A stretch of 42,562 nucleotides of DNA from Solirubrobacterales bacterium (GTDB lineage: Bacteria; Actinomycetota; Thermoleophilia; Solirubrobacterales; Solirubrobacteraceae). Of the stretch, positions 21,816 through 38,308 are shown one piece after another. The translations under genes were made by a program, and so were the position numbers. Positions within the stretch are counted from its first letter, which is position 1. Every line of letters starts with the position of its first letter. The stretch covers positions 1-42,562 of the forward strand of contig JAFASQ010000517.1 in NCBI GenBank assembly GCA_019244395.1, read 5' to 3'. The notes beneath the pieces were generated by a model. The model made no database searches. It saw only the letters and a program-made list of their open reading frames with translations, and was not told the DNA's origin.

Positions 21816-21910
21816 GGCTCGCTACAGCCCGGCGCGGTGAGGCTCGCTACAGCCCGGCGCGGTGAGGCTCGCTACAGCCCCGCGCGGTGAGGCTCGCTAC
21901 AGCCCGGCGA
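21811..21910. repeat. 4 x 25-bp tandem repeat across two convergent stop codons
   Basis: Four consecutive copies of a 25-bp unit start at 21811, 21836, 21861 and 21886. The third copy differs at one base (ccgcgc for cggcgc) and the last ends in a instead of c. The first copy supplies the TGA of the plus-strand lipoprotein (21813-21815). The last supplies the Ala-Gly-Leu-stop of the minus-strand epimerase (TAG, 21897-21899). The repeat is therefore a duplicated stop-stop junction, and copy-number changes would alter neither protein. Confidence 0.95.
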
Positions 21911-22826
21911 GAATCCGCCTCAAGCCGTCCCTCAGCCCGATCTGCGCTTCCCAGCCGAGCTCTCGGCGGGCGCGGGTGACATCGAGACGGCTCCGTCTCA
22001 CCTCGCCCGGTCGCTCGGGAGCGAACTGCGGCTCGGCTAGATGGTCCCCGCGGCCGACATCTCGCAGTGCATCGAGCAGTTCGAGGACGGAGGTCTCGCT
22101 GCCGTTCCCGATGTTGACCGGTCCCGAGAGCGTGGTGTCCGCGGCGAGCAGGTTGGCCCGCACCACGTCGCTCACCTCGACCCAGTCGCGGGTCTGTCGA
22201 CCGTCCCCGAACACCGTGGGCCGTCGGCCCTCGATCAGATGTCCGCAGAAGATGGCCACCACGCCGGCTTCACCGTGAATGTCCTGGCGCGGTCCGTAGA
22301 CATTGCCGTAGCGCAGGGACACGGTCGATAGCCCGTGCAGTCGGGTGTAGAGCGAGCAGTAGCCCTCGCCGGCGAGCTTGCCCTGGCCGTACGGCGCGAG
22401 CGGCTTGATTTCATAGCCTTCGGGTGTCGGAAGGAGATCGGCTTCACCGTAGAGACCGCCTCCGGTGGAGCTGTTGACAACGCGCCGGGCGCCGGCCGTC
22501 CTGGCCGCCTCGAGCACGGCGATCGTCCCCAGCACGTTCACCGTCGCGTCAGCGGCCGGCTGCTCGACCGAGACACGGACGTCGATTTGGGCGGCGAGAT
22601 GGAAGACGACCTCTGGCCTGACCGCGGAAAAGATCTCCTTGAGCTCGTCAGCGTCCCGGATATCCGTGGCGTGCAGCACGGCGCCGGCCTGTAGTGCTTG
22701 ATCGAGGTTTGACCGTTTCCCGCTCGAGAGGTTGTCGATCACGGCCACCCTGTCTCCACGCTCGAGAAGCGCGTCGACGAGGTTGGACCCGATGAACCCG
22801 GCACCTCCGGTCACCACGGTTTCCAT
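21897..22826 (-). CDS. NAD-dependent UDP-sugar 4-epimerase-like enzyme (GalE/Gne type)
   Basis: A 309-aa extended short-chain dehydrogenase. The NAD-binding GGAGFIG (7-13), catalytic Tyr146-x3-Lys150 (YGQGK) and a Ser/Thr site at NSST (118-121) are intact. The closest functional family is UDP-glucose/UDP-GlcNAc 4-epimerase; the ~310-aa size fits the short bacterial GalE forms. Beside GH114, GlmS and PelF, the likely job is making UDP-GalNAc from UDP-GlcNAc for the polymer; this is context inference, and dTDP-glucose 4,6-dehydratase-like activity is the alternative. The ATG at 22826 diverges from the GH114 gene, with 60 bases between starts. The last codons lie in the tandem repeat. Confidence 0.88.
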   Translation of the reverse strand: METVVTGGAGFIGSNLVDALLERGDRVAVIDNLSSGKRSNLDQALQAGAVLHATDIRDADELKEIFSAVRPEVVFHLAAQIDVRVSVEQPAADATVNVLGTIAVLEAARTAGARRVVNSSTGGGLYGEADLLPTPEGYEIKPLAPYGQGKLAGEGYCSLYTRLHGLSTVSLRYGNVYGPRQDIHGEAGVVAIFCGHLIEGRRPTVFGDGRQTRDWVEVSDVVRANLLAADTTLSGPVNIGNGSETSVLELLDALRDVGRGDHLAEPQFAPERPGEVRRSRLDVTRARRELGWEAQIGLRDGLRRILAGL

Positions 22827-22886
22827 GGCAGGGCAGAGTAGCTAGAGTTGAGAGGAGGGCGCGTCGACGATCAAGGAAGACGAACG

Positions 22887-23696
22887 GTGTCAAAGCTAAG
22901 GACTCGCCGGCGAATGGGCCGAAACACACGCGGGCTGGTGATGGTGGTGGTTATCTCTGCCATGTTCGCTGTGCTCACTCCGGCCGCGGCGAGCCGCATC
23001 TGGACGCCCGCGCCGCGCACGACATGGCAATGGCAACTCACGACGCCGGTGAGCCTGTCAGTGCCGGCTCAGATGTTCGACATCGACCTGTTCGACAATT
23101 CCGCCTCAGTCGTCGCTGCGCTACATCGCCGTGGTCGTCACGTGATCTGCTACCTCGACGCCGGTACCTACGAGAACTTTCGGCCCGATGCCGGTCGTTT
23201 TCCGCCGTCGTTGCTGGGCAAGCCGAACGGATGGCCGGGCGAGCGATGGCTTGACATTCGCCGCCTATCGGTGCTGGGGCCAATCATGCGGGCGCGTTTC
23301 TCGGAGTGCCGGCGCAAGGGGTTCGACGGGGTAGAGGCTGACAACGTCGACGCGTACGCAAACGACAGCGGCTTTCCGCTGACGGCGGCCGAGCAGCTCA
23401 CCTACAACCGCTGGCTGGCGCGCATGGCCCACGCGTTCGGGCTTTCGATTGCGCTCAAAAACGACCTCGACCAGGTTCAGTCCCTCGAGCCCTACTTCAA
23501 CTTCGCGCTCGACGAACAGTGCTTCGAGTACTCCGAATGCGAGAAGCTGAGACCGTTCGTCGGTGCGCACAAGGCAGTGTTCGAGGTCGAGTACAACCTC
23601 TCCCCAGGCCAGTTCTGCCGTCGGGCCAACGCTCTCGGCTTCATGGCAATGCGCAAGACGCTGAACCTAGAGGCCAGCCGGCGGGTCTGCTGGTAG
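22887..23696 (+). CDS. Secreted GH114 endo-alpha-1,4-polygalactosaminidase-like glycosidase
   Basis: A 269-aa exported protein. It has a twin-Arg-like basic start, a hydrophobic signal segment (~16-36), then one GH114-type TIM-barrel domain. Family blocks visible: WQWQLT, ICYLDAGTYENFRPD (87-101), GVEADNVDAY (148-157) and FALDEQCFEY (206-215). The acidic residues E150/D152 and E210 are the candidate catalytic and binding residues. GH114 enzymes (fungal Ega3, and the hydrolase domain of bacterial PelA is related) cut alpha-1,4-linked galactosamine chains. The GTG at 22887 is chosen because AAGGAA (22873-22878) lies 8 bases upstream. It is convergent with glmR (16-base gap). Confidence 0.85.
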   Translation: MSKLRTRRRMGRNTRGLVMVVVISAMFAVLTPAAASRIWTPAPRTTWQWQLTTPVSLSVPAQMFDIDLFDNSASVVAALHRRGRHVICYLDAGTYENFRPDAGRFPPSLLGKPNGWPGERWLDIRRLSVLGPIMRARFSECRRKGFDGVEADNVDAYANDSGFPLTAAEQLTYNRWLARMAHAFGLSIALKNDLDQVQSLEPYFNFALDEQCFEYSECEKLRPFVGAHKAVFEVEYNLSPGQFCRRANALGFMAMRKTLNLEASRRVCW

Positions 23697-23712
23697 CGGC
23701 CGGCGCTCGACT

Positions 23713-24624
23713 CTACGAGGCCGCCGATGCGGTTTGACGAGGCCGGGCAAGAATCCCGCGCAGCGCCGTGCGCAACAAAACGGGGTCGTGAATGCCCGGC
23801 TCATCGTCCTGCAACGGGCGCGGAATCGCTTCGACTCCTCGTCGGGCGAGGTGCGTGGGCGCGAATGAGACTTCGGCCTCAGGGTCATAGAGCACCGCGT
23901 CCACGCGGATGCCGTGGCGCCGGAGCGCTGCGAGGTGACCTGAGGCGCTCATGCCCGCGGTCTCGCCGGGCTGCCGCTGCAGGTTGCAGATCCACACCTT
24001 GCGCGCCGCGGTCGCGAGCAGTGCCGAGACAACATCAGGCAGCGCGCACACCGCCAGCACGCTCGTGAACAGCGATCCGGGTCCAAGGAGGACGTAGTCG
24101 CTGGTGGCGATCGACGCGAGTGCTGCATCGCTGACCCTCGGTCGCTCGGGGCTGAAGCGAAGCCGGCGAATGGCGGCCTGTGAGGTCCCGATTGCCGACT
24201 CGCCGAAGATCACTCCACCCCCCGCTTCGGCCATCAGCGACACGTTGTCGACGGTCGCAGGGACCACCTGCGCGCGGATCCCGAGTTCGAGACCGAGACG
24301 GTCGACGGCATGTCCGAGATCGCCGAACACATCTGCCAGCGACCTGATGACGAGGTTGCCGAGCGGATGCCGTCCGGAACGGTTGACCGTGACGGGCCGC
24401 TCGAGGGCGCGGGCGAGTGGGGTTCCATCAGCGGCCAGCGCGACCAGCGCGCGTCGCAGGTCACCCACCGCGGGACCACCCCCGTGTCGTCGCAACTCTC
24501 CCGACGAGCCACCGTCGTCGGCAACCGTGACCACCGCCGTCAGCTCACACGGCTCGTGGCGGAGCGCCGCCAGCACGGCCGCGAGGCCGTGACCGCCCCC
24601 GATGACGGTCACCCGTCCCAGCAT
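23713..24624 (-). CDS. glmR: GlmR/YvcK (CofD-like) regulator of cell-envelope precursor supply
   Basis: A 303-aa protein of the YvcK/CofD-like family. Conserved blocks: GGGHGLAAVL (9-18), TVADDGGSSGELRR (~33-46), GDLRRALVALA, HPLGNLVI and GPGSLFTSVL. In Bacillus subtilis GlmR binds UDP-GlcNAc and stimulates GlmS. Here the gene is the second of a pair, seven bases after the glmS stop, which makes the same pairing physically explicit. Many actinobacteria instead carry yvcK in the uvrC-rapZ-yvcK-whiA locus, so this may be an extra copy dedicated to the polysaccharide locus. The gene is convergent with GH114. Confidence 0.9.
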   Translation of the reverse strand: MLGRVTVIGGGHGLAAVLAALRHEPCELTAVVTVADDGGSSGELRRHGGGPAVGDLRRALVALAADGTPLARALERPVTVNRSGRHPLGNLVIRSLADVFGDLGHAVDRLGLELGIRAQVVPATVDNVSLMAEAGGGVIFGESAIGTSQAAIRRLRFSPERPRVSDAALASIATSDYVLLGPGSLFTSVLAVCALPDVVSALLATAARKVWICNLQRQPGETAGMSASGHLAALRRHGIRVDAVLYDPEAEVSFAPTHLARRGVEAIPRPLQDDEPGIHDPVLLRTALRGILARPRQTASAAS

Positions 24625-24631
24625 CCTCGGC

Positions 24632-26494
24632 CTACTCGACCGTGACCGTCTTGGCGAGGTTACGTGGCTGATCGACGTTCAGCCCTCGGGCGCGGGCCAA
24701 GTGGTAGGCGAACAGCTGCAAGGGGATGATGGCGAGCACGACCTGCAGGAGGGAGTCGGTCGCGGGAACGTAGACCACGTGTTCGGCGTGCTCGCCGATC
24801 TGCTTGCAGCCCTCGCTCGCTATCGCAAGCACGCGCGCGCCGCGGGCCCGGACCTCGGACAGGTTCGAGAGGAGCTTGGGCAGCACGGCCTGCTCCGTGG
24901 CGACGCACACTACCGGCGTTTCGCGGCCGAGCAACGCGATCGGTCCGTGCTTCATCTCACCGGCGGCGTACGCGTCCGTCGGTACGTAGGAGATCTCCTT
25001 GAGCTTCAGGGCACCCTCGAGAGCGACCGGTAGCCCGGACAGTCGACCCAGGTAGAGGAAGAAAGGACTCCAGACAAGCTGCTCCGCGAGCTGCCGCATC
25101 GGGGAATCCGCGGATTGGGTGACGTGCGCTACGCGGTCGGGAAGGAGATCGAGTTCGCGCTGCAGCTCGGCCAGTCGGTCGGCCGGGAGTGCGTCTCGAG
25201 CGCGCGCCAGATCCAGAGCCAGCGCACACAGAAGCACGACCTGAGCAACGAAGGTCTTCGTCGCGGCGACACCGATCTCGAGCCCGGCGCGCGTGAACAG
25301 CACGGCGTCCGCGTCGCGGGTCGCTTGGCTTCCGGGGGCGTTGGTAAGCGCGACCACCGTCGCGCCCTGAGCCCGCGCGAGCCGCATCGCCGCGAGCGTG
25401 TCGGCGGTCTCCCCCGACTGCGTGACGCCGAGGACCAGCGTGCCCGGCTCGATGATGGGTTCGCGGTAGCGGAATTCCGAGGCGACGTCGACCTCGACCG
25501 GAACGCGCGCCCAGCGCTCGATCGCCATGCGTCCGGCCAGCGCCGCGTGGTACGAGGTCCCGCAAGCGACGATGATCATCCGGCGGACGTTGCAGAGCTG
25601 CGCGAGCCCGAGCCGATGATTCTCGCGGGGGGCGAGGGGAGCGCGGGCTTGACGCAGGGTCTCCGCGATCGCCGACGGCTGCTCGTGGATCTCCTTGAGC
25701 ATGAAGGTCTCGAAGCCGTCCTTCTCGCAGCGGTCTTCGTCCCAATCCACCACGGTCTCCTGTGGAACACGCGGGAGGGCGTTGGCGTCGAAGACGGTCA
25801 GGCCGGACGGGCGCATGACGACCATTTCGCCGTCGTGCAGCACCACCACGCGGCGCGTGTGCTCGACGAAGGCCGAGATCGAGGACGCGACGAACAGCTC
25901 GTGATCGCCCATGCCCACGACCAGCGGGCACTCCTGCCGGACGCCGACGAGCGTATGCGGATCGTCATCGCACATCGCGACGAAGGCGAAATGTCCCGAG
26001 AGGACGGCGACCGCGCTGCGGACCGCCGCGGAGATATCTCCGTCGTAGTAGTACGAGATCAGCTGAGCGACGACCTCAGCATCGGTCTCCGAGGTGCAAT
26101 GGATCATCCCGGCGGCGAGCGACTCGCGAACCTCGAGGTAGTTCTCGATGATCCCGTTCAGAACGATGCGGATCCGCCCGCTGCAGTCGGTGTGCGGATG
26201 AGCGTTGCGCTCCGTGACGCCTCCGTGGGTAGCCCATCGAGTGTGGGCGATGCCAGCCGACACGGTCGCCGTGGCGACCGCGGCCGATTCGGAGGTGTCG
26301 TCCGTGCCGGAGTGCGCGTCCAGGGCGCAGGCAAGCGAGTCCAGGTTTCCAATCGCCCGCACGCATTCTGTGCGGCCGTTCTCCCGCCACGCCAGGCCGG
26401 CCGAGTCATAGCCTCGGTATTCCAGGCGCCGCAACCCATCGAATAACACGTCCTGGCTGCGCCGGTATCCCACGTACCCGATGATTCCGCACAC
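24632..26494 (-). CDS. glmS: Glutamine-fructose-6-phosphate aminotransferase (isomerising)
   Basis: A 620-aa enzyme making glucosamine-6-P from fructose-6-P and glutamine, the first step to UDP-GlcNAc. It has an N-terminal class II glutaminase with the nucleophile Cys2 (start reads V/M-CGIIGYVG) and two SIS domains in the C-terminal half (YHAALAGRMAIERWA; GVTQSGETADT; LGRLSGLPVALEGALKLKEISY), ending NLAKTVTVE. The GTG at 26494 is required to place the Cys at position 2 and has an excellent SD (GGAAGGAG). Length is normal. It is first in a glmS-glmR pair and diverges from a LuxR-type regulator. No glmS ribozyme core was seen in the 193-base upstream gap. Confidence 0.96.
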   Translation of the reverse strand: MCGIIGYVGYRRSQDVLFDGLRRLEYRGYDSAGLAWRENGRTECVRAIGNLDSLACALDAHSGTDDTSESAAVATATVSAGIAHTRWATHGGVTERNAHPHTDCSGRIRIVLNGIIENYLEVRESLAAGMIHCTSETDAEVVAQLISYYYDGDISAAVRSAVAVLSGHFAFVAMCDDDPHTLVGVRQECPLVVGMGDHELFVASSISAFVEHTRRVVVLHDGEMVVMRPSGLTVFDANALPRVPQETVVDWDEDRCEKDGFETFMLKEIHEQPSAIAETLRQARAPLAPRENHRLGLAQLCNVRRMIIVACGTSYHAALAGRMAIERWARVPVEVDVASEFRYREPIIEPGTLVLGVTQSGETADTLAAMRLARAQGATVVALTNAPGSQATRDADAVLFTRAGLEIGVAATKTFVAQVVLLCALALDLARARDALPADRLAELQRELDLLPDRVAHVTQSADSPMRQLAEQLVWSPFFLYLGRLSGLPVALEGALKLKEISYVPTDAYAAGEMKHGPIALLGRETPVVCVATEQAVLPKLLSNLSEVRARGARVLAIASEGCKQIGEHAEHVVYVPATDSLLQVVLAIIPLQLFAYHLARARGLNVDQPRNLAKTVTVE

Positions 26495-26500
26495 GGCGGG

Positions 26501-26508
26501 CTCCTTCC
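26501..26508 (-). promoter_or_regulatory. Shine-Dalgarno site fixing the GTG start of glmS
   Basis: GGAAGGAG on the minus strand, 6 bases before the GTG at 26494. It excludes the longer upstream frame and places the glutaminase Cys at residue 2. Confidence 0.8.
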
Positions 26509-26687
26509 TGTTAGCTCGCCAAAGTGCTTCCAATTACATGCCGCGTCCTTGACCTCGGCAAGGCTCGGCCCGGGCCATTCCGCGTTCACGGGATGATCTC
26601 CGCTCACCCGCCCGCTTCGTTGCCGTGCACCTCGGCCGGGCCGTGACGCTAAAGGTCGAGACGGTTTGGGCCGATACAAGCCAGGCA

Positions 26688-27335
26688 ATGACGGTGGAGA
26701 GACCCGAGGTCATCGTGGTTGACGACCACGAGCTGTTTCGGCGTGGACTCGTCGCGGTACTGAAGGAACGAGGGATCCAGGTGATCGGCGAGGCGTCGCT
26801 GGCGCGAGAGGCGATCACGTTGGTCACCGAACGGGATCCGGACGTGATCCTCCTGGACCTGAACATGCCGGGCATGTCGGGAATCGAGGCGATCCATCGC
26901 CTGACCGCGATCGCGCCCCTGAAACCCGTGGTCGTGATCACGGTGATGGCCGACGAGGCGAGCCTGATGGACGCACTGCTCGCCGGGGCATGTGGATACG
27001 TGCTCAAGGATCAGCCGATCGATCAAATCGTTGAGGGCATCCGGGCGGCGGCCAGAGGTGAGTCGCTGATCTCACCGCGGATGGCCAGCCGGCTGGTCCA
27101 CCGGATCCGCGCACCGAATCACGCTGAGTTGCCGGGAAGTGACCCCAAGCTGACGTCGCGCGAACTCGAGGTCCTGCACTTCGTCGCGCGCGGGATCGAC
27201 AACCGGGAGATAGCCAACGCGCTGTTCCTGAGCGAGCACACGGTGAAGAACCATGTGTCGAACATACTGCTCAAGCTTCAGGTCGAGAACCGCATTCAGG
27301 CCGCCGTTCGTGCCGTCCGCGGCCAGCTTGTCTGA
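26688..27335 (+). CDS. NarL/LuxR-type response regulator
   Basis: A 215-aa two-component regulator. The receiver domain (1-~125) has the acidic pocket VDDHE, phosphoacceptor Asp57 in LLDLNMPG, Thr85 in VVITV and Lys107 in YVLKD, all canonical. The C-terminal LuxR helix-turn-helix (~155-210) reads LTSRELEVLHFVARGIDNREIA then LSEHTVKNHVSNILLKL. The ATG at 26688 fits the receiver's first strand. No histidine kinase is in the window, so it is an orphan here. It diverges from glmS-glmR (193-base gap) and converges on the PelF operon, so control of one or both is a fair inference. Confidence 0.93.
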   Translation: MTVERPEVIVVDDHELFRRGLVAVLKERGIQVIGEASLAREAITLVTERDPDVILLDLNMPGMSGIEAIHRLTAIAPLKPVVVITVMADEASLMDALLAGACGYVLKDQPIDQIVEGIRAAARGESLISPRMASRLVHRIRAPNHAELPGSDPKLTSRELEVLHFVARGIDNREIANALFLSEHTVKNHVSNILLKLQVENRIQAAVRAVRGQLV

Positions 27336-27338
27336 CCG

Positions 27339-27617
27339 TCATAAGAACTCCGATTCAGGATCGACGCTCACGCGCAATCCTTTGATGGTCGCGCGGAGCG
27401 ACGCGAGCTCCTCGGTGAGTTCCGCATGGCGTCGCTCGAGATCGGCTCGCTGCAGCGGAACCGCGCCCGGGCGGGCGAGAGCGTCCAGAAGACAGGACAG
27501 CCGGCGCCGCTCGTCATCCAGCACGAGAACACACGCGTGCAGACTGCACAGCGCGTCATAGGTTTGCTGATCCAGCGCTGGCGTCGTGGAACAGGCAAGA
27601 CGGCGATTCGCGTTCAC
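27339..27617 (-). CDS. Small coiled-coil protein, unknown
   Basis: A 92-aa predicted protein, largely helical, with a heptad-rich stretch (RADLERRHAELTEELASLRATIKGLRVSVD, in the C-terminal half; hydrophobic a/d positions visible). I recognise no family. Its ATG overlaps the stop of the 155-aa gene in an ATGA (27614-27617), strong support that it is translated and coupled. It ends three bases from the stop of the convergent LuxR-type gene. Being last in the PelF operon suggests a role tied to polymer synthesis or its assembly; this is inference only. Confidence 0.65.
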   Translation of the reverse strand: MNANRRLACSTTPALDQQTYDALCSLHACVLVLDDERRRLSCLLDALARPGAVPLQRADLERRHAELTEELASLRATIKGLRVSVDPESEFL

Positions 27618-28081
27618 GCTGTGCGTACCAAGCCGTCGGTGTTGGCAGGAGCACCCGTACCGGGCTGCGCGTTGACGAGGGCGACGCTCAGCGGCAGTAC
27701 CTCGCCGCGCGGACGCGGATCTTCGCGGACCCTCGCTTCAAGCGCGGAGATGGCGGCCTCGATCTCGGTAGTTGCCTGTGCGAGTGCTTCCCGGACCACA
27801 TGGCTGTCGCCGAGCATGGCCCAAGCGTCCTCGACGGTCTCAGGGTTGACTGGTTGCTTGGCGATGAGCCGCAAGTATTCGATCACCGTGCCCAGGTCGA
27901 CAGGGCGGTGGCGGTCAGCTTTGAGACGCGCGTTCTCCTCCCGTAAGAGCAGCAGTTCCAGTTTCAGCTCGGCGCAGTCATCAGCCGAACCTTCCACCCA
28001 AGCTGCTTCGGCGTCCCGGAAGCGCCAGTCGACGGCGCGGCGCAGCCGCTCCACTGCCGAGGTCTTCTCCACGATGCTCAT
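27614..28081 (-). CDS. Helical coiled-coil protein, unknown
   Basis: A 155-aa acidic protein with a clear coiled-coil core (DDCAELKLELLLLREENARLKADRHRP, split over residues ~34-60) and a second helical part (VVREALAQATTEIEAAISALEARV). No signal peptide, TM segment or known domain is seen. GGGAAG-like SD bases precede the ATG at 28081 by about 6. It lies 169 bases after the 12-TM gene; that gap shows no clear structure and may hold its own promoter. It couples by ATGA to the 92-aa gene. A cytosolic scaffold or regulator of the PelF synthase is possible but unproven. Confidence 0.7.
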   Translation of the reverse strand: MSIVEKTSAVERLRRAVDWRFRDAEAAWVEGSADDCAELKLELLLLREENARLKADRHRPVDLGTVIEYLRLIAKQPVNPETVEDAWAMLGDSHVVREALAQATTEIEAAISALEARVREDPRPRGEVLPLSVALVNAQPGTGAPANTDGLVRTA

Positions 28082-28250
28082 TCAATCTTCCCGTTCAGCT
28101 GGCTCAACATTTCCGGCGGTTGTGCACGCGTGCTGCAGTCGACGCGGCGCCGATACCGCTGGTTAAGGTTCCCGCTTGCCAGCCGTCAGGTGAATCGGCT
28201 ATTTCGCCGATCCACGTTCATCCCCGTGAACGATGATGCGGCGAAACCGG

Positions 28251-29567
28251 CTACTGGATCCAGAGAGTCGTCGCCAGCACGCGGCCGGACCGCGAGAGCA
28301 GCACGAGCAGGGGCGGTACGGTCAGCACGATCCCAACGATCGCGCCGGCCGCCAGAGCCCCGCCGGCTACGTGCGCGCCCACTATCCGCGGCCACGCAAG
28401 CTCGACGGCCAGCGCTGCTGAGCACGCGATCACGGCGGCTCGGCCCCGTCCGAGTGACTCCAGCAGACCGACCAACAGGCTGACCAGGGCCATGCATCCG
28501 AAGGCGACCAACACGCTCACATCGTCGGTCCCATGCGTCCAACGCCCGATGAGGAGGAGCAAACCCGACAGGAGGACGGTAGCTCCCACAAGGCGCAGGA
28601 TCGCACCGAGGAAAAGCATCATCGCCGGGTCGGTCATGGCTGCGCGTCCGGCGCGATGGAGCGGCACCCCGCTCATCCCCCGCGGTACCGCTTCGTAGAG
28701 GTTCCACAGGTAATAGCCGCCCCAAAAACTGCCGATCACCGACGGCACGAGCGCGATGGCGGGGTGCACGCCGTGTACCCCCCAGCCGAGGCTCGGATCG
28801 CCAATCAGCAGGACGCCGATGCAGCCTCCGAGCAGGCCGGCCACCAAGGCTCTGGATAGGGTGCCGGCGCGCGTGTCGGTCGCCGAGCGGCGCGTGAGGA
28901 CGGCGGCGATGGCGACGCTCAAGGTCACTAGAGTGAGCAGTCCGAGCACGAGGTATGGCCTCCCATCTTGCGCGAGGGCGATGCTCGTCGCCACCAGCAT
29001 GAGCGCATAGAGCAGGCCCCAGCCGCGGCGGGTGACCACCGTCCCGGCGACCCAGATCGCGACGAGCATCGCGGCAACCGGACCCCAGGCTGGCATCAGG
29101 GCCAGCGGCAGCGCACAGGCGAGGGCCGCCACAGCGCTGAAGGCGAGGCCGTCGCGCGCGAGCAAGGCAAGGCCGCTGCGACGGCTCAGGTACCGGCTTC
29201 GTAACGCCCACTGCAGCGCGACCGATGTCGGCAGGGCGACCGCGATCGCTTCGGCCAGCACGCCATCCCCGAGCGCTCGACTGAGCGGAGTTGCCCACGC
29301 GGCGACGGACAGGATCGAGAGAACGAGCGCTATGCCCTCGACGAGGACCCCTTGCTGCTCGTCGTCTTCTGGCGCATCGATGCGGCCCCTGTCGGGTTTC
29401 GGATCTCCGTCCCCCGCGACCAGTTCTCGCGCCGCCAACATGGCGCTCTGGGCGGGTCTTCCCAGCCACGCCTCCAACACGATGGTTGCCTCGATCACGT
29501 CGCGGGCGGCGCGTCCCAGCCGGGCTTGCACGACACCGGCAGCGTGCTCGTCTTTCGGGCTCCTCAT
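28251..29567 (-). CDS. 12-TM membrane protein coupled to PelF (candidate PelG-equivalent exporter)
   Basis: A 438-aa protein: ~75 cytosolic residues at the N-terminus (a helical block VVQARLGRAARDVIEATIVLEAWLG), then about 12 hydrophobic segments between residues ~75 and 430. Its ATG (29567) overlaps the PelF stop in ATGA, so it is made together with the glycosyltransferase. In pel loci PelF is followed by PelG, a 12-TM MOP/Wzx-like protein; topology and position match. I do not recognise PelG sequence motifs in it, and a stretch SFWGGYYLWNLYEAVPRGMSG between TM8 and TM9 is unfamiliar, so it may be a distinct family doing the same job. The function is therefore inferred from context. Confidence 0.8.
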   Translation of the reverse strand: MRSPKDEHAAGVVQARLGRAARDVIEATIVLEAWLGRPAQSAMLAARELVAGDGDPKPDRGRIDAPEDDEQQGVLVEGIALVLSILSVAAWATPLSRALGDGVLAEAIAVALPTSVALQWALRSRYLSRRSGLALLARDGLAFSAVAALACALPLALMPAWGPVAAMLVAIWVAGTVVTRRGWGLLYALMLVATSIALAQDGRPYLVLGLLTLVTLSVAIAAVLTRRSATDTRAGTLSRALVAGLLGGCIGVLLIGDPSLGWGVHGVHPAIALVPSVIGSFWGGYYLWNLYEAVPRGMSGVPLHRAGRAAMTDPAMMLFLGAILRLVGATVLLSGLLLLIGRWTHGTDDVSVLVAFGCMALVSLLVGLLESLGRGRAAVIACSAALAVELAWPRIVGAHVAGGALAAGAIVGIVLTVPPLLVLLSRSGRVLATTLWIQ

Positions 29568-31222: not shown

Positions 31223-31250
31223 AGCTGTTCAACCAGCTGAACAACAGCAG
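31223..31250. promoter_or_regulatory. Candidate operator between pelF and the deacetylase gene
   Basis: In the shared upstream region an imperfect palindrome (gttca-N6-tgaac, 31227-31242) overlaps a direct repeat of agctg (31223-31227 and 31235-31239). A ttgacg hexamer lies at 31183-31188 on the plus strand. A regulator such as one of the two LuxR-type proteins in the locus could bind here. This is a pattern only; the rest of the 226-base gap shows nothing recognisable. Confidence 0.25.
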
Positions 31251-31349: not shown

Positions 31350-33119
31350 ATGAAGATGGGTCTGGTAGGCATGACCGGCGCCGAGCCGTCGTTGCTGGCG
31401 TGGCAAGTCGCGCTCGACCGCGCGGGAACGCCGCACGAGGTGCTTGCCCTCCAAGACCGGGACGGGCGCGCGCGGTTGACCTCCGCCATGAGGCGCGGAG
31501 GGTTCCAAGCCTTGATCATCGCCGGTGCCGAGATCATCGAGACGGCTCTGAGCACCAGCGAGCGAGCCGAGTTGGAGGCGCTCGAACGGGCGCGCGGGAC
31601 CCGCCGGCTGTTGGCCTATGCCTACCCGGGGCCGACGCACGGGCTCCGTCCTGCTTTCTGGGCCGGCCCACTGGACGGGCTCAGGGTTTCGCTCACGCCT
31701 CGCGGCCGCCGCGTCTTTCCCTACTTGCACGGCACGCTGGAGTTCGACGCCGGCAGCTGGGGGTATCTGGCCGCGCCGATCAGCGCCGGAAGCTTCGAGA
31801 CCCTGCTGGCGGCTCCCGACGGCTCGCCCCTGCTAGGGCTCTACCGTCACCGCGACGGTCGCGAGACGATGGTTCAGACCTTCGCCGCGAACGCGAGTCA
31901 GTCGCATGCCTTGCTGTTGCGCTTTGGCCAACTGGCGTGGGTCTCGGGCGGGAGCTATCTCGGGTTTGAGCGCAACTACCTGCCGGTTCACATCGACGAT
32001 GTGCTGCTGGCTAATCACTCGTGGAACGTCGCGACCCACAGGACGGATGATGATCCCCGCGCGACGATTCGGATGACCGCGGCCGACGTTGCGCGGGCCG
32101 CGGGGTGGTCACGCGCCCGTCGCCTTCGCCTCGACATGGTCTGCAACGGAGGCGGGAGCGAGCGCTACCGGGCGGCGGCTGGTCTGACGGCTGATCCGGT
32201 TCTCGACGCCCTTCTGGACGAGCGCAGCACGTTTGGTTGGATCAACCACACGTACTCGCACGGGAACCTCGACAAGGCTTCCCGAACGACGATCGAAGCC
32301 GAGATCGAGCGCAACGTTAGGTGGGCTGAGCGGGCCGGGATCGAACTCGAGCCGGGCGCGCTCGTGACCGGCGAGCACAGCGGCTTGGCCAACCTCGAGG
32401 CGACGCCCCGACGACCCGAGAATCCGGAACTCCCTTCAGCGCTTCGCGCTCAGCGAGTGCGCTATATCGCCTGCGACGCATCGCGACCGTACCCCGTCTG
32501 TGAAGTCGGTCGGGGAGCAGATCTGCTCCCGCCTGGCATGCCGTTCGTAGTCGGTCCGGCGCTCGCCATCCCGCGTCATCCGACTGCCCTTCCCTTCGAC
32601 AGCGCGACCCGGTCCCAGGCGGTGGACAGATGGCGGAGCCATCGCCGCACCGAACCGGCGCCGACTTGGGAGGAGGTGCTGGCCTCCGAGGCGGCACGGA
32701 TCTTCGTCGCGATGCTGGCCAACGACCCGTGTCCCCACTACTTTCACCAGAGCAACCTCGTCTCGAGCCTCGACGGAGAGACGCCGGAGGGAGCGCTCCT
32801 GTACGAACTGCTCGACGCTGTCCTTCAGCGCTACGAGAGTGCGGTCCACGACATGCCGATCGTGCAGCCGAGGTTCGGCGAGGTCGGCGAGCTGCTGCGC
32901 GATCGGACCGCCTGGCGCGCCGCGCGCGCGGCTGGGGCCGTCGTCGCGTACCGCGAGGCTGCGGGAGTGAGGATCGCGAACGATTCGGGCGCTGCGCTGC
33001 GCGTTCCGCTCACCGGCACGGTCGCGGGGGGACGGTACGGCGTGACGCGGTCGGGCTGGATCCTGGCCGAACCGGGGGAAACGCTCGTGGCGCTCGAGAC
33101 TGGCTCCGCCGCCGCGTAG
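31350..33119 (+). CDS. Agd3-like (CE18-type) polysaccharide deacetylase without signal peptide
   Basis: A ~589-aa protein with an N-terminal beta-rich domain (1-~205, CBM87-like position), then a NodB-related deacetylase domain. The metal-site motifs are HIDD (His214-Asp216-Asp217) and NHTYSH (His300, His304), with GEHSGLANL and CPHYFHQSNL further on, and a beta-sandwich tail (RIANDSGAALRVPLTG). This order matches the fungal exopolysaccharide deacetylase Agd3 and the large secreted paralogue at 34589. Unlike that paralogue it has no hydrophobic signal, whichever start is used (ATG 31317, 31350 or 31356; gGGAA before 31356 is the best SD). So it is either cytosolic or exported by another route. 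It is divergent from pelF. Predicted reaction: N-deacetylation of (Gal/Glc)NAc residues. Confidence 0.8.
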   Translation: MKMGLVGMTGAEPSLLAWQVALDRAGTPHEVLALQDRDGRARLTSAMRRGGFQALIIAGAEIIETALSTSERAELEALERARGTRRLLAYAYPGPTHGLRPAFWAGPLDGLRVSLTPRGRRVFPYLHGTLEFDAGSWGYLAAPISAGSFETLLAAPDGSPLLGLYRHRDGRETMVQTFAANASQSHALLLRFGQLAWVSGGSYLGFERNYLPVHIDDVLLANHSWNVATHRTDDDPRATIRMTAADVARAAGWSRARRLRLDMVCNGGGSERYRAAAGLTADPVLDALLDERSTFGWINHTYSHGNLDKASRTTIEAEIERNVRWAERAGIELEPGALVTGEHSGLANLEATPRRPENPELPSALRAQRVRYIACDASRPYPVCEVGRGADLLPPGMPFVVGPALAIPRHPTALPFDSATRSQAVDRWRSHRRTEPAPTWEEVLASEAARIFVAMLANDPCPHYFHQSNLVSSLDGETPEGALLYELLDAVLQRYESAVHDMPIVQPRFGEVGELLRDRTAWRAARAAGAVVAYREAAGVRIANDSGAALRVPLTGTVAGGRYGVTRSGWILAEPGETLVALETGSAAA

Positions 33120-33150: not shown

Positions 33151-33855
33151 TCAGCTGGCCTTGAGCAACTGGATCGCGGCGCGGCGGTCGGTAGCCCCGA
33201 GCTTGCGCGTGATGGCTGAGATATGGCGCCGGACGGTTACTTCGGAGATCCGGAATTGCTCGGCGATCTTGGCTGTCGGTTCCTCGCGACGCATCCGCTC
33301 GAGGATCTCGAACTCGCGCGCCGTGAGCTCGACAGGCTGCCCGCCGACCGTAATCTGCAGGCGCCTCTGGCTTCCCCGGGTCTGGAACTCGCGAATCAGC
33401 CGAGCCGTCATCCGTCGCGAGAGCGCGGCTTCGCCGCGGGCGACGGCACGCAGAGCGTGCACGAGTTGCTCGGCTGAGATCGACTTGGCCACATACCCGT
33501 CTGCCCCTGCGCCCAGAGCCGCGAACATCTGCTCTTCGCGCTCGGACTCGCTCAGCATCACGATCTTCGTCGCGGGCAGAGCCTGCCTGATCCGCTCCGC
33601 GGCCAGGATCCCGTTGCCGGGAATGTCCGTCGCGAGCACGCAGATGTCGGGGGAGGTGGCCAGCGCGGCGGCTATCGCCTCCGGCGCGCTGCTCACGTCG
33701 GCGAGAACCTTCAGCCCAGACGAGTCCAGCACGCGGCGCACGCCGATCCGCATGCCGACGTCGTCATCCGCGATGACCACCGATACTGCGGCGTCAGGTC
33801 CGTCCAGAACTTCGAAGCGCCCCGGATCGTGCCCATCCATGGGTACGACATCCAT
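33151..33855 (-). CDS. Atypical LuxR-type response regulator lacking the phosphoacceptor Asp
   Basis: A 234-aa regulator. The receiver domain (~22-145) keeps the acidic triplet IADDD (28-32), Ser102 and Lys124, but the residue at the phosphorylation site is Ala75 (VLATDIPG; the position four before the conserved Pro). A nearby Asp77 could not sit in the usual place. The C-terminal HTH (~176-230) is LuxR-like: LTAREFEILERMRREEPTAKIA then ISEVTVRRHISAITRKL. It is probably a phosphorylation-independent or ligand-controlled regulator. It sits between the two Agd3-like genes, convergent with the first, and is the natural candidate to control them. Confidence 0.9.
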   Translation of the reverse strand: MDVVPMDGHDPGRFEVLDGPDAAVSVVIADDDVGMRIGVRRVLDSSGLKVLADVSSAPEAIAAALATSPDICVLATDIPGNGILAAERIRQALPATKIVMLSESEREEQMFAALGAGADGYVAKSISAEQLVHALRAVARGEAALSRRMTARLIREFQTRGSQRRLQITVGGQPVELTAREFEILERMRREEPTAKIAEQFRISEVTVRRHISAITRKLGATDRRAAIQLLKAS

Positions 33856-34445: not shown

Positions 34446-34551
34446 TGGGTGAACGGAGAACGGGCGAACAAACCCATCCCCGGCGCGAGCCGGGGCCATC
34501 AGAGTCCGGTGCAGGTTCGCACGCCGACACGAGGCGTGTTCGTTTCACCCA
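34446..34551 (+). ncRNA. Structured 5' leader of the secreted deacetylase gene, possible riboswitch
   Basis: Between the lipoprotein and the deacetylase the RNA can form a closing stem (TGGGTGAA 34446-34453 with TTCACCCA 34544-34551), a second stem (CGAACA 34465-34470 with TGTTCG 34537-34542), an internal 7-bp hairpin capped by a GCGA tetraloop (34478-34495), and a hairpin cacgcc/ggcgtg (34520-34538) that competes with the second stem. The same TGGGT can instead pair with ACCCA at 34472-34476, so two exclusive folds exist. I match it to no known class by eye; GEMM-type (c-di-GMP) signature bases are not evident. It ends 37 bases before the GTG start. Confidence 0.4.
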
Positions 34552-34578
34552 CTGACTAGGTCGAGGGCATCAACGCAT

Positions 34579-34583
34579 GGAGG
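34579..34583 (+). promoter_or_regulatory. Shine-Dalgarno site fixing the GTG start at 34589
   Basis: GGAGG with a 5-base spacer before GTG 34589. The ATG at 34577 overlaps this site and has no SD of its own, so the GTG is preferred. Confidence 0.8.
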
Positions 34584-34588
34584 TTCCT

Positions 34589-37500
34589 GTGTCAACTTCA
34601 TTTCCGGTCCTGAGCAGGATCGCCGCACGGTTCTGTGGCGCCTCCAGGCGAGGGTCACTCCTCGGCTCGCTGATCGTCCTCGTCGTGGGCGCGTTCGTCT
34701 CGACGCCCGTGGCCTCGGCGGCTTCATCGCCGCGCATCGACCTGAAAGTCCTGCTGCTGGGGACGTCGACCACACAGGCCGACTTTCAGGGTTGGCAGGC
34801 GGCGCTGCAGCGCGAGGGAGTGCGGTTCGACACGCTGGTCGGGCCGACTCACACGCCGATCACCGCATCGACGCTGTCGACGACGTTGCCGGACGGGACG
34901 CCCGAGGCGAAATACGACGCGGTCATCGAGTCCGTGGGCGGCCTGACCGATTGCTCGACGACGTGCGTCTCAGATCTTTCCGCCTCGGAGGTTACGGCGC
35001 TCGAGCAGTACGAACACCGGTTCAACATCCGCCAGATCACCGGCGATGTCTATCCCGGTACGACGTACGGGATGAACGTGCCCTCGTTCTCGGGTGCGCT
35101 CGATGGCACGTCCGGAACCCTCACCTCGGATGGCCAGCAGGTGTTCCCGTACCTGAAGCCGACAGCCCCGATCACCATGGACACCGGCACCTATGGATAC
35201 GAGGCCACGCCGGTCAGCACGACGAACTTCGACACGCTGGTCAGCGGGCCGAATGGTTCGGCCCTGGTCGGCGTGTACACGCACACCGACGGCGTTCAGG
35301 AGATGGTGGAGACCTTCGCCCAGAACCAGTACCAGCTGCAGTCGGAGCTGCTGCGCCACGGGGCCCTCGCCTGGGCGACCCGCGGGGTGTACTTCGGAGC
35401 TCAGCGCAACTACCTCGACGCGCACGTCGACGACAACTTCCTCTCCGATGACTCATGGAGTACGACGGCACACAGCACCGACTTCAACCCGGCGAACGCG
35501 CTGCGCGAGGTGCCGGCCGACGTGAACCAGGCCGCCCAGTGGTCGGCGGCGAACCACTTCCGGATCGACATGCTGTTCAACGGTGCCGGCAGCGTGGCCG
35601 TGGCCAACGGCAGCAGCCTGGTCGGCGCGGGCGACAGCGGCAGCGGGACCACGGGCAGCAGCGGCGGCTCGAGTGGCTCGGGCAGCTGCAGCACCGCGAA
35701 CCCGTGCCCGGATCCGCTCCTGCAGGAATTCCAGTCCTCCGATCCCGCGACCGGGAAGCCCTACACCGGTGACTTCGGCTGGATCAACCACACCTGGGAC
35801 CACCCGAACATCGACGAGGGCTGCGCCACGCAGAACTACATCGAGGCCGAGCTGAACCAGAACACCCTCTGGGGCTCGAAGGCTGCCTCGGCGGGGAACC
35901 CGATCGCAGGCGGGCTAGGCCTAACCTCCAGTACAGATCCTGCGGCCGCGCTCGGAACCGAGAACCCGAACGTGCTCGTCACCGGCGAGCACTCCGGCTT
36001 GGCCAACCTGATCCCGGGCAACCCCGGACAGGTCGATCCACCGTCGCTGTCATCGGCGACGCCGGGCGCCGGAGGCACGCTGACGGCAGGCACGTACGAG
36101 TATGCGATCAGCGACCAGTTCAACACGGCGGCACCTGGCGCCACGGGCGTTGCCGCCACCGGCGAGTCCGCGGCATCTGTATCCGCGCCGCTCACGGTCG
36201 GCGCGACCGGCTCGGTGAGCCTGAGCTGGACAGCGGTGTGCCATGCGGCGGATTACAAGATCTACCGCGCTCCGGTGACCGGGACGACGGTAGGAGCATG
36301 GACGCTGATCGACACGGTGCCGGCAACCCCGGCCACCGATTTCACCAATCCGGCCTCCACCACCGACACCGCAAACGGCGGACCGATCGAGAAGTCGTAT
36401 ACCGACACCGGCAAGACCGGCTCGCCGGCCACCCCGCCGAGCACCAGCAGCGCCAACGAGAGCGCCTACGAACAGAATCCGGTTCTTGACGCCGCGTTCA
36501 CGAGCACGCTTGACGGTGGAATCAAGTACTTCGGCGCGGATGCGTCAAAGCCGTACCCGAACCCGGCCAATAGCTCGTTCACCACGGGCTCGGCGCCGGC
36601 CAGCCAGTACACGGCCGGTTCGACGTTCAGCGATGCCGGGGCGACGGCAATCCCGCGCTACCCGACCAACATCTACTACAACGTGTCGACCAACGCCCAG
36701 GAGGTCGACGAGTACCAGACGTTGTACGACCTGCCGACGTGCAAGGCGATCACCGGCGTTACCACGTGCAACCCCGCCGGCACGCCGTTCACGATCGACC
36801 AGATCGTCAAGAGCGTCGACCAGGGCATGTTCCAGCACATGATGGGCAACGACCCCCGTCCGCACTACTTCCATCAGACCAACCTGATGGCTCAGCACAC
36901 GGGCGCGGTCACCGGTCAGGGTGACGGGTTGTTCTACGAGACGATGAATCCCCTGCTGGCCGAGTACAACCAGTACTTCGCCGCCAGCGCGCCGATCGAG
37001 CAGCCGACGATGGCCGACATCGGGACGCTGCTCAGCGAACAGGCAACGTGGGGCGCCAATACCACGGTGAGCGGTTACATCCAGGGCAACCAGGTGACGA
37101 TCACCAACTCGGGCTCGGCCGTCGAGGCTCCGCTGAGCGGGATCACGACCGTTGGGTCGCTCTACGGTGGCACGCAATCCGGCTGGACGAGCCTGCCGGC
37201 CGGCACGAGCACGTATACCGCCACGATCACCTGGCCCGCGGACGTTCTGACGGTTTCGCTGTCACCGGGTTCAATCGCCGCCAATGGCACGTCGACGAGC
37301 ACCGCAACCGCGACATTGACCGCTGACGGCAAGCCCGTGGCGGGTGACCCGGTCGCGTTCACCTCGAACGACGCCGCGGTGAAGTTCGGCACGGCGACGG
37401 ATACCGGCAACGGCACCTACACCGTGACGATCACGGGTTCCACGACGGTGCATCCTGTCACGATCACCGCGACGGACGCCGCGGTGGCGCCCGTGGCCAC

Positions 37501-38308
37501 CGGCCAGGCGACGCTGAACCAGACCGCCGGTCAGGTCTCGAGTGTCGCGGTCTCGGTCTCGCCGGCGTCGGTCCTCGCCGACGGAAGCTCGACCGCCACG
37601 GCGACCGCTCGACTGGTCGATGCCCAGGGTCATCCGGTGCCCGGCGAGCACGTCGTGATCTCCTCATCCGACAGCGGCGAGAAGATCGCTCCGGTGTCCG
37701 ACCACGGCGACGGCACGTACACCGCGACCATCACCAGCTCGAGGACCGCTCACGTGGTCACGATCACCGCGGCCGACGGGTCGATCTCGCCGGCGCCGTC
37801 GGGTACGGCGACTCTGACCCAGACCCCGGTACCAACCACCCCGGCGCCGCCGGCAAACCCGGCGCCGCCGTCAAACCCGGCACCGCCAGCTGCCCCGGTG
37901 GCACCGTCGAACCCGGGTTCGCCGTCGATCTCCGGCCTGCCGACACGGGCTCAGCTCAAGGGCCTGCTGCTAGGCCTCCTGGTCCCGTCGGGCAAGAACG
38001 GGAAGATCCCGGCTCTGCTCAAGCATGGCGGCTACGCGCGTTCGGTCAGGATGCCGATGGCAACGCACGTGACGGTGAACTGGCGACTGCCGGCGGCCAA
38101 GGGCAAAAAGGGCATGCTGATCGCGAAGGTGAATGTCACGATTGCCGGCGGGCGCGTGGTGACGATCAAGATCGCGCTGACCAAGCAGGGACGGCGGCTG
38201 CTGGCGCAGAGCAAGCGTCTGCGGGTGGCCGCCGACGGGACGCTCAGCATCGGGGGAGTCCAGGTGACCGCCGCGAGGTCGTTCGTGGCTAGCACAACGG
38301 GTCCGTAA
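34589..38308 (+). CDS. Large secreted Agd3-like deacetylase with Ig-like repeats and surface domain
   Basis: A 1239-aa exported protein. Signal peptide to ~residue 41 (ends ASAA); N-terminal beta-rich domain (~46-270); deacetylase core with HVDD (279-282) and NHTWDH (His401, His405), GEHSGLANL (~463-471) and RPHYFHQTNL (~755-764). Two insertions split the core: a Gly/Ser linker (~343-373) and an fn3-like segment (~481-620). Then two invasin/Big-type Ig domains (~886-980, ~984-1075; each DG-STSTATA...DGTYT), a Pro-rich linker (~1077-1115) and a basic C-terminal domain (SGKNGKIPALLKHGGYA...) of a kind common on Thermoleophilia surface proteins. It probably deacetylates the polymer outside the cell while held to the surface. 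Paralogue of the signal-less gene at 31350. Confidence 0.87.
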   Translation: MSTSFPVLSRIAARFCGASRRGSLLGSLIVLVVGAFVSTPVASAASSPRIDLKVLLLGTSTTQADFQGWQAALQREGVRFDTLVGPTHTPITASTLSTTLPDGTPEAKYDAVIESVGGLTDCSTTCVSDLSASEVTALEQYEHRFNIRQITGDVYPGTTYGMNVPSFSGALDGTSGTLTSDGQQVFPYLKPTAPITMDTGTYGYEATPVSTTNFDTLVSGPNGSALVGVYTHTDGVQEMVETFAQNQYQLQSELLRHGALAWATRGVYFGAQRNYLDAHVDDNFLSDDSWSTTAHSTDFNPANALREVPADVNQAAQWSAANHFRIDMLFNGAGSVAVANGSSLVGAGDSGSGTTGSSGGSSGSGSCSTANPCPDPLLQEFQSSDPATGKPYTGDFGWINHTWDHPNIDEGCATQNYIEAELNQNTLWGSKAASAGNPIAGGLGLTSSTDPAAALGTENPNVLVTGEHSGLANLIPGNPGQVDPPSLSSATPGAGGTLTAGTYEYAISDQFNTAAPGATGVAATGESAASVSAPLTVGATGSVSLSWTAVCHAADYKIYRAPVTGTTVGAWTLIDTVPATPATDFTNPASTTDTANGGPIEKSYTDTGKTGSPATPPSTSSANESAYEQNPVLDAAFTSTLDGGIKYFGADASKPYPNPANSSFTTGSAPASQYTAGSTFSDAGATAIPRYPTNIYYNVSTNAQEVDEYQTLYDLPTCKAITGVTTCNPAGTPFTIDQIVKSVDQGMFQHMMGNDPRPHYFHQTNLMAQHTGAVTGQGDGLFYETMNPLLAEYNQYFAASAPIEQPTMADIGTLLSEQATWGANTTVSGYIQGNQVTITNSGSAVEAPLSGITTVGSLYGGTQSGWTSLPAGTSTYTATITWPADVLTVSLSPGSIAANGTSTSTATATLTADGKPVAGDPVAFTSNDAAVKFGTATDTGNGTYTVTITGSTTVHPVTITATDAAVAPVATGQATLNQTAGQVSSVAVSVSPASVLADGSSTATATARLVDAQGHPVPGEHVVISSSDSGEKIAPVSDHGDGTYTATITSSRTAHVVTITAADGSISPAPSGTATLTQTPVPTTPAPPANPAPPSNPAPPAAPVAPSNPGSPSISGLPTRAQLKGLLLGLLVPSGKNGKIPALLKHGGYARSVRMPMATHVTVNWRLPAAKGKKGMLIAKVNVTIAGGRVVTIKIALTKQGRRLLAQSKRLRVAADGTLSIGGVQVTAARSFVASTTGP

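What the first reader, a model, noticed from the sequence alone, without database searches (positions are those of the whole stretch)
21897..38308. Bacterial locus resembling the fungal galactosaminogalactan cluster, built around PelF
Within 16.4 kb lie a PelF-type GT4, a 12-TM protein coupled to it, two Agd3-like deacetylases, a GH114 galactosaminidase-like enzyme, a UDP-sugar 4-epimerase, glmS and glmR, and two LuxR-type regulators. Aspergillus makes galactosaminogalactan with a GT4 (Gtb3/Gt4c), Agd3 deacetylase, GH114 Ega3 and epimerase Uge3; bacterial Pel uses PelF with PelG and a PelA that joins hydrolase and deacetylase. This locus has PelF but no PelA, B, C, D or E in the window, and separate Agd3-type deacetylases as in fungi. 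It may be an undescribed hybrid system making a partly deacetylated alpha-1,4-GalNAc-type polymer in an actinobacterium.
Basis: partly seen in the sequence, partly recalled or inferred. Interest (0 to 1): 0.9.

Follow-up and report, generated by a model that had tools for sequence, protein, structure and literature searches.

The report
Bacterial cousin of fungal biofilm cluster
An actinobacterium carries a set of genes that looks made for a sticky, partly deacetylated galactosamine-type surface polymer, built like the fungal biofilm polymer galactosaminogalactan and the bacterial polymer Pel, with its own kind of membrane exporter and an odd extra deacetylase that seems to stay inside the cell.

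Summary
In detail: PelF-type GT4, a 12-helix membrane protein, two Agd3-like (CE18) deacetylases, Ega3-like GH114, SDR epimerase, glmS, yvcK/glmR and two LuxR-type response regulators lie at 21897-38308. The linkage is real: in 249 class genomes CE18 (11) and curated PelF (13) share 10 genomes, and all 7 clear carriers of the membrane protein have both. But the kind is published: Bamford 2020 described bacterial Agd3 operons with cytoplasmic GT, multi-spanning membrane protein and GH114, in Actinobacteria too. Additions here: (1) the membrane protein is modelled as a MOP exporter, hence a diverged PelG counterpart; a PelF tree splits by partner. (2) The short CE18 keeps six catalytic residues but has no signal peptide, alone with its two orthologues among 95 CE18 proteins apart from two explained cases; dN/dS 0.21-0.28. 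(3) Two uncharacterised small genes and an extra glmS go with the locus. Best reading: a Pel/GAG-like exopolysaccharide system without detectable PelD. Polymer chemistry is inferred. New variant of a known kind.

The parts
21897..22826 (-). SDR-family nucleotide-sugar epimerase (Uge3 counterpart by role; substrate not fixed; not a constant part of related loci)
   Evidence: PF01370 2.9e-58; TIGR01179 galE 161.9 bits, below cut-off 262; GGAGFIG and YGQGK (YxxxK) read in the sequence
22848..23696 (+). GH114 endo-alpha-1,4-galactosaminidase-like enzyme (Ega3-like), probably secreted
   Evidence: PF03537 2.1e-80; phmmer 170.5 bits to Ega3 6oj1; hydrophobic N-terminal stretch read by eye
23713..24624 (-). 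YvcK/GlmR-type regulator (UDP-GlcNAc binding inferred from the family)
   Evidence: TIGR01826 224.6 bits, cut-off 196
24632..26533 (-). glmS, second full-length copy in this genome (other copy G000:C465)
   Evidence: TIGR01135 723 bits; copies counted
26625..27335 (+). LuxR-type response regulator 1
   Evidence: PF00072 6.1e-26, PF00196 1.4e-19
27339..27617 (-). small conserved protein (92 aa as called), no known family
   Evidence: conserved in G023 and G008 and G009; dN/dS 0.33 to G023; no Pfam match
27614..28081 (-). small conserved coiled-coil-like protein (155 aa), no known family
   Evidence: profile hits in all 9 A3-exporter genomes scanned, 39-60 bits in the five outside the genus; dN/dS 0.295 to G023; no Pfam match over cut-off
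28251..29567 (-). 12-helix membrane protein modelled as MOP-fold exporter with a helical N-terminal domain; PelG counterpart; start overlaps the pelF stop
   Evidence: AF2 pLDDT 79, pTM 0.75; Foldseek: 31 of the top 32 hits are named MOP members; ATGA overlap read
29564..31123 (-). PelF-type GT4 glycosyltransferase (longest frame; true start uncertain, conserved part from about residue 46)
   Evidence: NF038011 146.6 bits, PF11997 4e-37; tree
31226..31243 (.). perfect inverted repeat TGTTCA-N6-TGAACA, putative operator between pelF and the short CE18 gene
   Evidence: same place in G009 and G023; in the window 1 exact site and 4 at up to 2 mismatches against 0.27 expected
31350..33119 (+). short CE18 deacetylase with CBM87-like region, 589 aa from the likely start, no signal peptide (open frame from 31209)
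   Evidence: Agd3_CE 48.8 bits; six catalytic residues kept; no hydrophobic segment upstream
33151..33855 (-). LuxR-type response regulator 2
   Evidence: PF00072 8.8e-19, PF00196 2e-13
34577..38308 (+). long CE18 deacetylase with signal-like segment: CBM87, CE18 with a large insertion, two invasin/Big_1-type Ig stretches
   Evidence: PF25116 1.9e-8, PF25115 1e-9, PF02369 2.5e-16, PF09134 6.7e-23; hydrophobic segment

Best explanation
This is a biosynthesis and modification locus for a cationic exopolysaccharide of the Pel/galactosaminogalactan type in a Solirubrobacterales actinobacterium. Proposed working: an extra GlmS, probably tuned by YvcK/GlmR, raises UDP-GlcNAc; the SDR epimerase (or another one in the genome) supplies UDP-GalNAc; PelF polymerises it on the cytosolic face; the coupled MOP-fold protein, the local PelG counterpart, passes the chain through the membrane; the secreted CBM87-CE18-Ig protein partly deacetylates it at the surface so that it becomes cationic and sticks; secreted GH114 trims deacetylated stretches. 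Control is by two LuxR-type response regulators and an inverted-repeat operator, not by PelD. A second CE18 without signal peptide stays in the cytosol, where it may act on nascent chain or precursor (step unknown). Shown by sequence: families, catalytic residues, co-occurrence, synteny. Shown by model only: MOP fold. Inferred: sugar, linkage, direction of flow, secretion, regulation.
For: Families. Co-occurrence in 249 class genomes: CE18 in 11, PelF over cut-off in 13, both in 10; membrane protein clearly in 7 (an eighth, partial hit at 7e-4 in G183 left out), all 7 with both. Of the best 80 of 522 CE18 stretches, 58 have near-full flanks: 56 of these have PelF, 55 a multi-helix frame next to PelF, 55 GH114. 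MOP fold for the window protein and for the Streptomyces-type protein. Sequence bridge: the partner in G215 scores 31.5 bits with Pfam PelG (cut-off 29) and 37.9 bits with the Streptomyces-type profile. PelF tree: rows labelled PelG and rows with the new partners separate at 100/100. Equivalents of Agd3 D377, D378, H510, H514, R613, H668 all present. GH114 close to Ega3. Two or more full-length glmS in 6 of 7 locus-carrying genomes, one in 4 of 4 locus-free genus mates. PelD over cut-off in 0 of 249.
Against: No chemistry, no expression data. PelG's Pfam model hits none of the 12 + 25 members of the exporter families; hhalign against a small PelG set gives at most 7%. For the window model Foldseek finds no match at E 1e-3 or better (best 1.6e-3), with query TM-scores 0.33-0.51 and rmsd 7-20 A in the top 32. 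The 37.9-bit bridge match carries a composition bias term of 67 bits. The epimerase is below the GalE cut-off and no epimerase was found near pelF in 4 of the 9 A3-type genomes (G042, G160, G231, G256). yvcK and the 92-aa gene were seen only in the genus. G008 lacks GH114 and a second CE18. The locus is patchy: 4 of 28 genus genomes. PelD gives 3 weak hits in 249 (none over cut-off, none in a PelF-over-cut-off genome) and no control genome rang, so that search had no positive control. Hypergeometric values ignore relatedness.
Confidence: 0.72

Rival explanations
1. A diverged Pel locus: the product is ordinary Pel and the CE18/GH114 pair merely replaces PelA.
For: PelF passes the curated PelF model; Gram-negative loci such as L024 combine CE18 and GH114 with TPR, weakly PelD-like and PelF genes; two PelF-PelG loci of the phylum have a CE18 gene next to PelG (L139, L148).
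Against: No PelG or PelD by Pfam in this genome; PelF falls outside the PelG-labelled clade at 100/100; extra glmS/yvcK.
Confidence: 0.3
2. The enzymes serve to attack polymers of others (fungal GAG, Pel of neighbours) rather than to make one.
For: GH114 is common in the class without PelF (66 of 249 genomes with GH114, 13 with PelF over cut-off); the long CE18 and GH114 carry signal-like N-termini.
Against: PelF and a MOP-type exporter, joined by a 4-base overlap in 43 of 66 loci as scripted, are synthesis genes; 10 of 11 CE18 genomes have PelF over cut-off.
Confidence: 0.07
3. A related machine with another sugar (for example alpha-1,4-GlcNAc/GlcN or a mixed chain); the GalNAc assignment is wrong.
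For: The epimerase is only generically SDR and is not constant: none near pelF in G042, G160, G231, G256; glmS/yvcK point only to hexosamine.
Against: The characterised relatives Agd3 and Ega3 act on GalNAc/GalN chains (PMC7229062, passages and section 13).
Confidence: 0.2
4. The short CE18 is exported in some other way, or is on the way to loss, and has no cytosolic role.
For: It begins just where the mature chain of the others begins and sits on a long branch (0.89).
Against: All six catalytic residues kept; dN/dS 0.21-0.28; conserved in 3 genomes; no hydrophobic stretch seen in the upstream frames displayed.
Confidence: 0.4

Closest known systems
Bacterial Agd3 (CE18) operons, Bamford et al. 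2020 (PMC7229062; section 13 read whole, other passages)
   Same: CE18 + cytoplasmic GT + multi-spanning membrane protein + GH114, in Actinobacteria among others
   Different: Here the GT is tied to PelF and the membrane protein to the MOP fold; two CE18 paralogues, one without signal peptide; glmS/yvcK, two small genes and response regulators in the locus. The section read names none of these; its figure and supplements were not open to me
Fungal GAG cluster (uge3, sph3, gtb3, ega3, agd3), Lee et al. 2016 (PMC4817252, passages)
   Same: Agd3-type deacetylase, Ega3-type GH114, an epimerase, a GT
   Different: Separate PelF and membrane protein in place of the membrane GT Gtb3; no Sph3-type hydrolase among the window frames scanned with Pfam; bacterial regulators
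Pel (pelABCDEFG; Gram-positive pelDEADAFG, PMC7112168 and PMC13254593, passages)
   Same: PelF plus a MOP-fold membrane partner (PelG's MOP membership as stated in PMC13254593)
   Different: Partner not recognised by the PelG model and with an extra N-terminal helical domain; no PelD detected; CE18 and GH114 in place of PelA or PelADA
MOP superfamily flippases (MurJ, WzxE, MATE)
   Same: 12-helix fold of the exporter model
   Different: No sequence match to any PDB chain; coupled to a polymerising GT4

Membership tests
Bacterial Agd3/CE18 exopolysaccharide loci (Bamford 2020) | CE18 deacetylase with motifs CM1-4 | tested here: met
   equivalents of D377/D378, H510/H514, R613 and H668 in both paralogues (A1 columns D263 D264 H347 H351 R456 H513 invariant in 6 of 6)
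Bacterial Agd3/CE18 exopolysaccharide loci (Bamford 2020) | CBM87 N-terminal domain | tested here: met
   long CE18: PF25116 34.8 bits, cut-off 27.6; the short one has no Pfam CBM87 hit but aligns to that part of Agd3
Bacterial Agd3/CE18 exopolysaccharide loci (Bamford 2020) | cytoplasmic GT, multi-spanning membrane protein and GH114 alongside | tested here: met
Pel system | PelF glycosyltransferase | tested here: met
   NF038011 146.6 bits, cut-off 100
Pel system | PelG by curated model | tested here: not met
   PF16933: 0 matches in the own genome and in the 12 A3 members; fold similar only
Pel system | PelD c-di-GMP receptor | tested here: not met
   PF16963: no match in G000; 3 of 249 at E 1e-3, 0 over cut-off; no control genome rang
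Pel system | PelA/PelADA (CE21/GH166 or CE26) | not tested
   no match noticed among the window frames scanned; not searched genome-wide
Fungal GAG cluster | Ega3-type GH114 | tested here: met
   170.5 bits to 6oj1
Fungal GAG cluster | UDP-GalNAc-forming epimerase (Uge3) | tested here: inconclusive
   SDR family only; galE model below cut-off; absent near pelF in 4 of 9 A3-type genomes
Fungal GAG cluster | Gtb3 homology | not testable with these tools
   no fungal sequence collection on hand
MOP superfamily | 12-helix MOP fold | tested here: met
   12 long helices; Foldseek: 31 of the top 32 are named MOP members, the other (5c6n) is listed only as 'protein A', probability 0.97-1.00; second family: top 34 all MOP
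MOP superfamily | sequence homology to a known MOP family | tested here: inconclusive
   indirect chain PelG model - G215 partner - A4 - A3; no direct hit

The most novel reading that the evidence does not exclude
The short CE18 is a cytosolic polymer deacetylase: in this genus part of the GalNAc chain, or its activated precursor, is deacetylated before export, so that a partly cationic chain passes through the MOP exporter and the secreted CE18 only finishes the job. Every deacetylase of this kind that I know of (Agd3, PelA, PelADA, PgaB, IcaB; partly from the passages read, partly recalled) acts outside the cytosol.
Probability: 0.2. Interest if true: 0.75.

Novelty: new variant of a known kind. 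Interest (0 to 1): 0.5.

Why it matters
Bamford 2020 left the membrane protein of the bacterial Agd3 operons unidentified in the section read. If it is a MOP exporter paired with its own PelF clade, then the GAG-like bacterial systems and Pel share one synthesis-export principle (GT4 + MOP partner), with interchangeable modifying enzymes. This gives a simple test for the origin of the fungal cluster: whether the membrane part of Gtb3 is a MOP bundle fused to a PelF-type GT4. It also points to cultured actinobacteria (Conexibacter, Streptomyces) in which polymer and export can be studied, and to a deacetylase that appears to work on the wrong side of the membrane.

Tried and rejected
Frame 27426-28166(+): rejected as a gene, no family, and the conserved frames lie on the other strand. 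Identifying the membrane protein by family: no match; the fold search decided for MOP. Direct PelG homology by hhalign: not shown. In that call the row for L123 was a wrong frame in both PelG sets, and the L116 row of the larger set carried an untrimmed N-terminus; single-sequence controls (an MFS and an Na/H antiporter of the window) gave at most 0.5%. The A3-A4 comparison gave 52%, 89% and 73% with three versions of the alignments. PelF at E 1e-3 is useless as a marker, since 249 of 249 genomes and 14 of 14 controls match through the general GT4 part, so I used the curated cut-off. Agd3_CE at E 1e-3 missed the G171 gene (16.4 bits), so the CE18 count of 11 is low by at least one. The first script for signal peptides was faulty because the profile covers the signal; replaced, which uses a hydropathy rule, not a dedicated predictor. 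dN/dS of the membrane gene against G009 used a wrong frame and is discarded. Promoter scan: 0 sites, mean 1.0 in shuffles, uninformative. Whether the 47 codons before 31350 are translated: codon-position counts undecided; in the frame itself neither start gives a signal. Comparison of the site in locus-free genomes: not done.
Full report
WHAT IS THERE. The window is the whole contig C157 of a 580-contig genome. Corrections: the membrane gene starts, on my reading, at 29567, overlapping the PelF stop by four bases; the short CE18 most likely starts at ATG 31350; two further small genes lie on the minus strand at 27614-28081 and 27339-27617, conserved in G023 and G008 and in G009, with dN/dS 0.30 and 0.33 against G023. 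Neither matches a Pfam family over cut-off.

IS IT A UNIT? Yes. Agd3_CE is found in 5 of 61 relatives, 4 of them among the 28 genomes of the genus. The window's proteins recur in G023 (81-88% identity for the locus proteins, 77% for the short CE18) and G009, and in part in G008 and in G042 of another family. Over the same 249 genomes of the class: Agd3_CE in 11, PelF over its curated cut-off in 13, both in 10; the membrane protein clearly in 7 (an eighth, partial hit at 7e-4 left out), every one of the 7 with both; GH114 in 66, among them 9 of the 11. Hypergeometric values are 1.5e-14 (PelF with CE18) and 3e-11 (membrane protein with CE18), without correction for relatedness. In the named collection a CE18 profile scan gave 522 stretches coding for a relative, of which the best 80 were held; 44 of the 80 are titled Streptomyces, and four (L014, L015, L029, L031) are the same loci as in G023, G009, G160 and G042. 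Of the 80, 68 have PelF, 59 GH114 and 53 an epimerase, at the score limits; 62 of the 68 have a frame with at least five hydrophobic segments next to PelF (a mechanical test). Of the 58 with flanks nearly complete, 56 have PelF, 55 such a membrane frame and 55 GH114.

THE MEMBRANE PROTEIN. Two sequence families occupy the place after pelF: A3 (window, Conexibacter and others) and A4 (Streptomyces and others). AlphaFold2 models of one member each show 12 long helices after a helical N-terminal domain (pLDDT 79 and 86). Foldseek against the PDB: for the window model 31 of the top 32 hits are named MOP transporters (MurJ, MATE, WzxE) and the other is listed only as 'protein A' (best E 1.6e-3, none at 1e-3 or better, query TM 0.33-0.51, rmsd 7-20 A); for the Streptomyces-type model the top 34 are all MOP (best E 2.2e-4). 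Profile comparison A3-A4 gives 73% (E 3e-5). The Pfam PelG model hits no member, but the PelF partner in G215 hits it at 31.5 bits (cut-off 29) and also matches A4 along nearly its whole length, N-terminal domain included, at 37.9 bits with a bias term of 67. I conclude, at moderate confidence, that the protein is a PelG counterpart of the MOP superfamily. In the class, 7 of the 13 PelF genomes have the A3 type beside PelF, 5 the A4 type (40-186 bits), and G210 an unclear relative. A PelF tree of 41 rows separates rows labelled PelG from the rest at 100/100, with the 12 A3 rows one clade at 100/100. Two of the five PelG rows (L024, L027) were labelled from Pel-like neighbours or position, since their loci end before PelG would appear; L140 dropped out for low score; one long branch (L147) is flagged by the program.

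THE ENZYMES. Against Agd3 (6nwz, +122 numbering) the short CE18 keeps the equivalents of D377, D378, H510, H514, R613 and H668; M666 is Tyr, as in all six proteins aligned. A profile of the six finds Agd3 at 6e-26. GH114 aligns to Ega3 with 170.5 bits. The long CE18 has a signal-like segment, CBM87, a CE18 domain with a large insertion, and two invasin-type Ig stretches.

THE ODD DEACETYLASE. Of 95 distinct CE18 proteins, 89 have a clear hydrophobic segment before the first CBM87 strand and one a weaker one (Kyte-Doolittle rule). Five do not: L027 (frame as called begins inside the domain), L133 (long N-terminal part with a hydrophobic segment far upstream, seen), and the short CE18 of the window, G009 and G023. 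These three have Met just where the mature chain of the others begins. No signal-like stretch was seen in the upstream frames displayed (for G023 the last 87 bases before the start were not displayed in the other two frames). dN/dS is 0.21-0.28, and the three form one clade on a long branch. These are also the only genus genomes in which two CE18 matches were found; G008 has one, the long type. An exact inverted repeat TGTTCA-N6-TGAACA stands before the gene in all three and in no other fetched stretch (7 of 148 loci, all covering these three places).

PRECURSOR SUPPLY AND CONTROL. Two or more full-length glmS genes occur in 6 of 7 locus-carrying genomes examined (G042 has one) and one in 4 of 4 locus-free genus mates; in G160 and G231 one copy also lies about 3-5 kb from pelF. 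YvcK/GlmR lies next to the locus glmS in all four genus genomes with the locus and was not seen in the A3-type loci outside the genus. [quoted passage not shown] The epimerase is not constant: none near pelF in G042, G160, G231 and G256. PelD is not detected: no match in G000, 3 weak hits in 249, 0 over cut-off, without a positive control. Two LuxR-type response regulators lie in the locus; I saw no histidine kinase gene in the window (frames scanned only).

WHAT IS KNOWN. Bamford 2020 (section 13 read whole; other passages) found Agd3 homologues in 45 bacterial species, 30 of the 35 in the tree in or near carbohydrate operons, and says that all operons identified had a cytoplasmic GT and a multi-spanning membrane protein, GH114 being highly consistent. 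Lee 2016 (passages) had named a bacterial origin of the fungal cluster as one possibility. I found no paper that names the membrane protein as MOP, ties it to a separate PelF clade, or reports a CE18 without signal, in the searches, whose listings I read, with passages of six papers; most subscription papers and all supplements were out of reach.

VERDICT. Real, coherent, and a new variant of a known kind. Shown: families, residues, linkage, co-occurrence. Modelled: MOP fold. Inferred: polymer chemistry, direction of flow, regulation, and any role of the cytosolic deacetylase.

Noticed in passing
L139:7447-12270, L148:7321-12174: Two other genomes of the phylum (G314, G286) have PelF-PelG followed directly by a CE18 gene (Agd3_CE 85.8 bits in L139): a PelG-type locus with an Agd3-type deacetylase.
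   Followed up: partly
L024:9782-21525: Proteobacterial MAG locus with CE18, GH114, TPR proteins, a weak PelD-like protein (E 0.006) and PelF in one row: CE18 and GH114 seem to replace PelA.
   Followed up: partly
L138:6173-8865; also L134 and L136: Two PelF-type GT4 genes in tandem before the exporter gene in G271, and apparently in G210 and G215.
   Followed up: partly
window 28215-28232: A second perfect inverted repeat, CGTTCA-N6-TGAACG, just downstream of the exporter gene.
   Followed up: no
window 34577-38308: The long CE18 carries an insertion of about 150 residues between motifs CM2 and CM3 that reads like an FN3-type domain (impression; no profile hit).
   Followed up: no
G000:C215:21758-22684: A second YvcK-family gene in the window's genome (295 bits) and in G023 (302 bits), while four locus-free genus mates have none over the cut-off.
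   Followed up: no
window 7757-12943: Overlapping frames: TPP enzyme 9109-11193(-) against the end of an MFS gene and a SpoIID-like gene 10812-12128(+); the gene starts there are probably over-extended.
   Followed up: no
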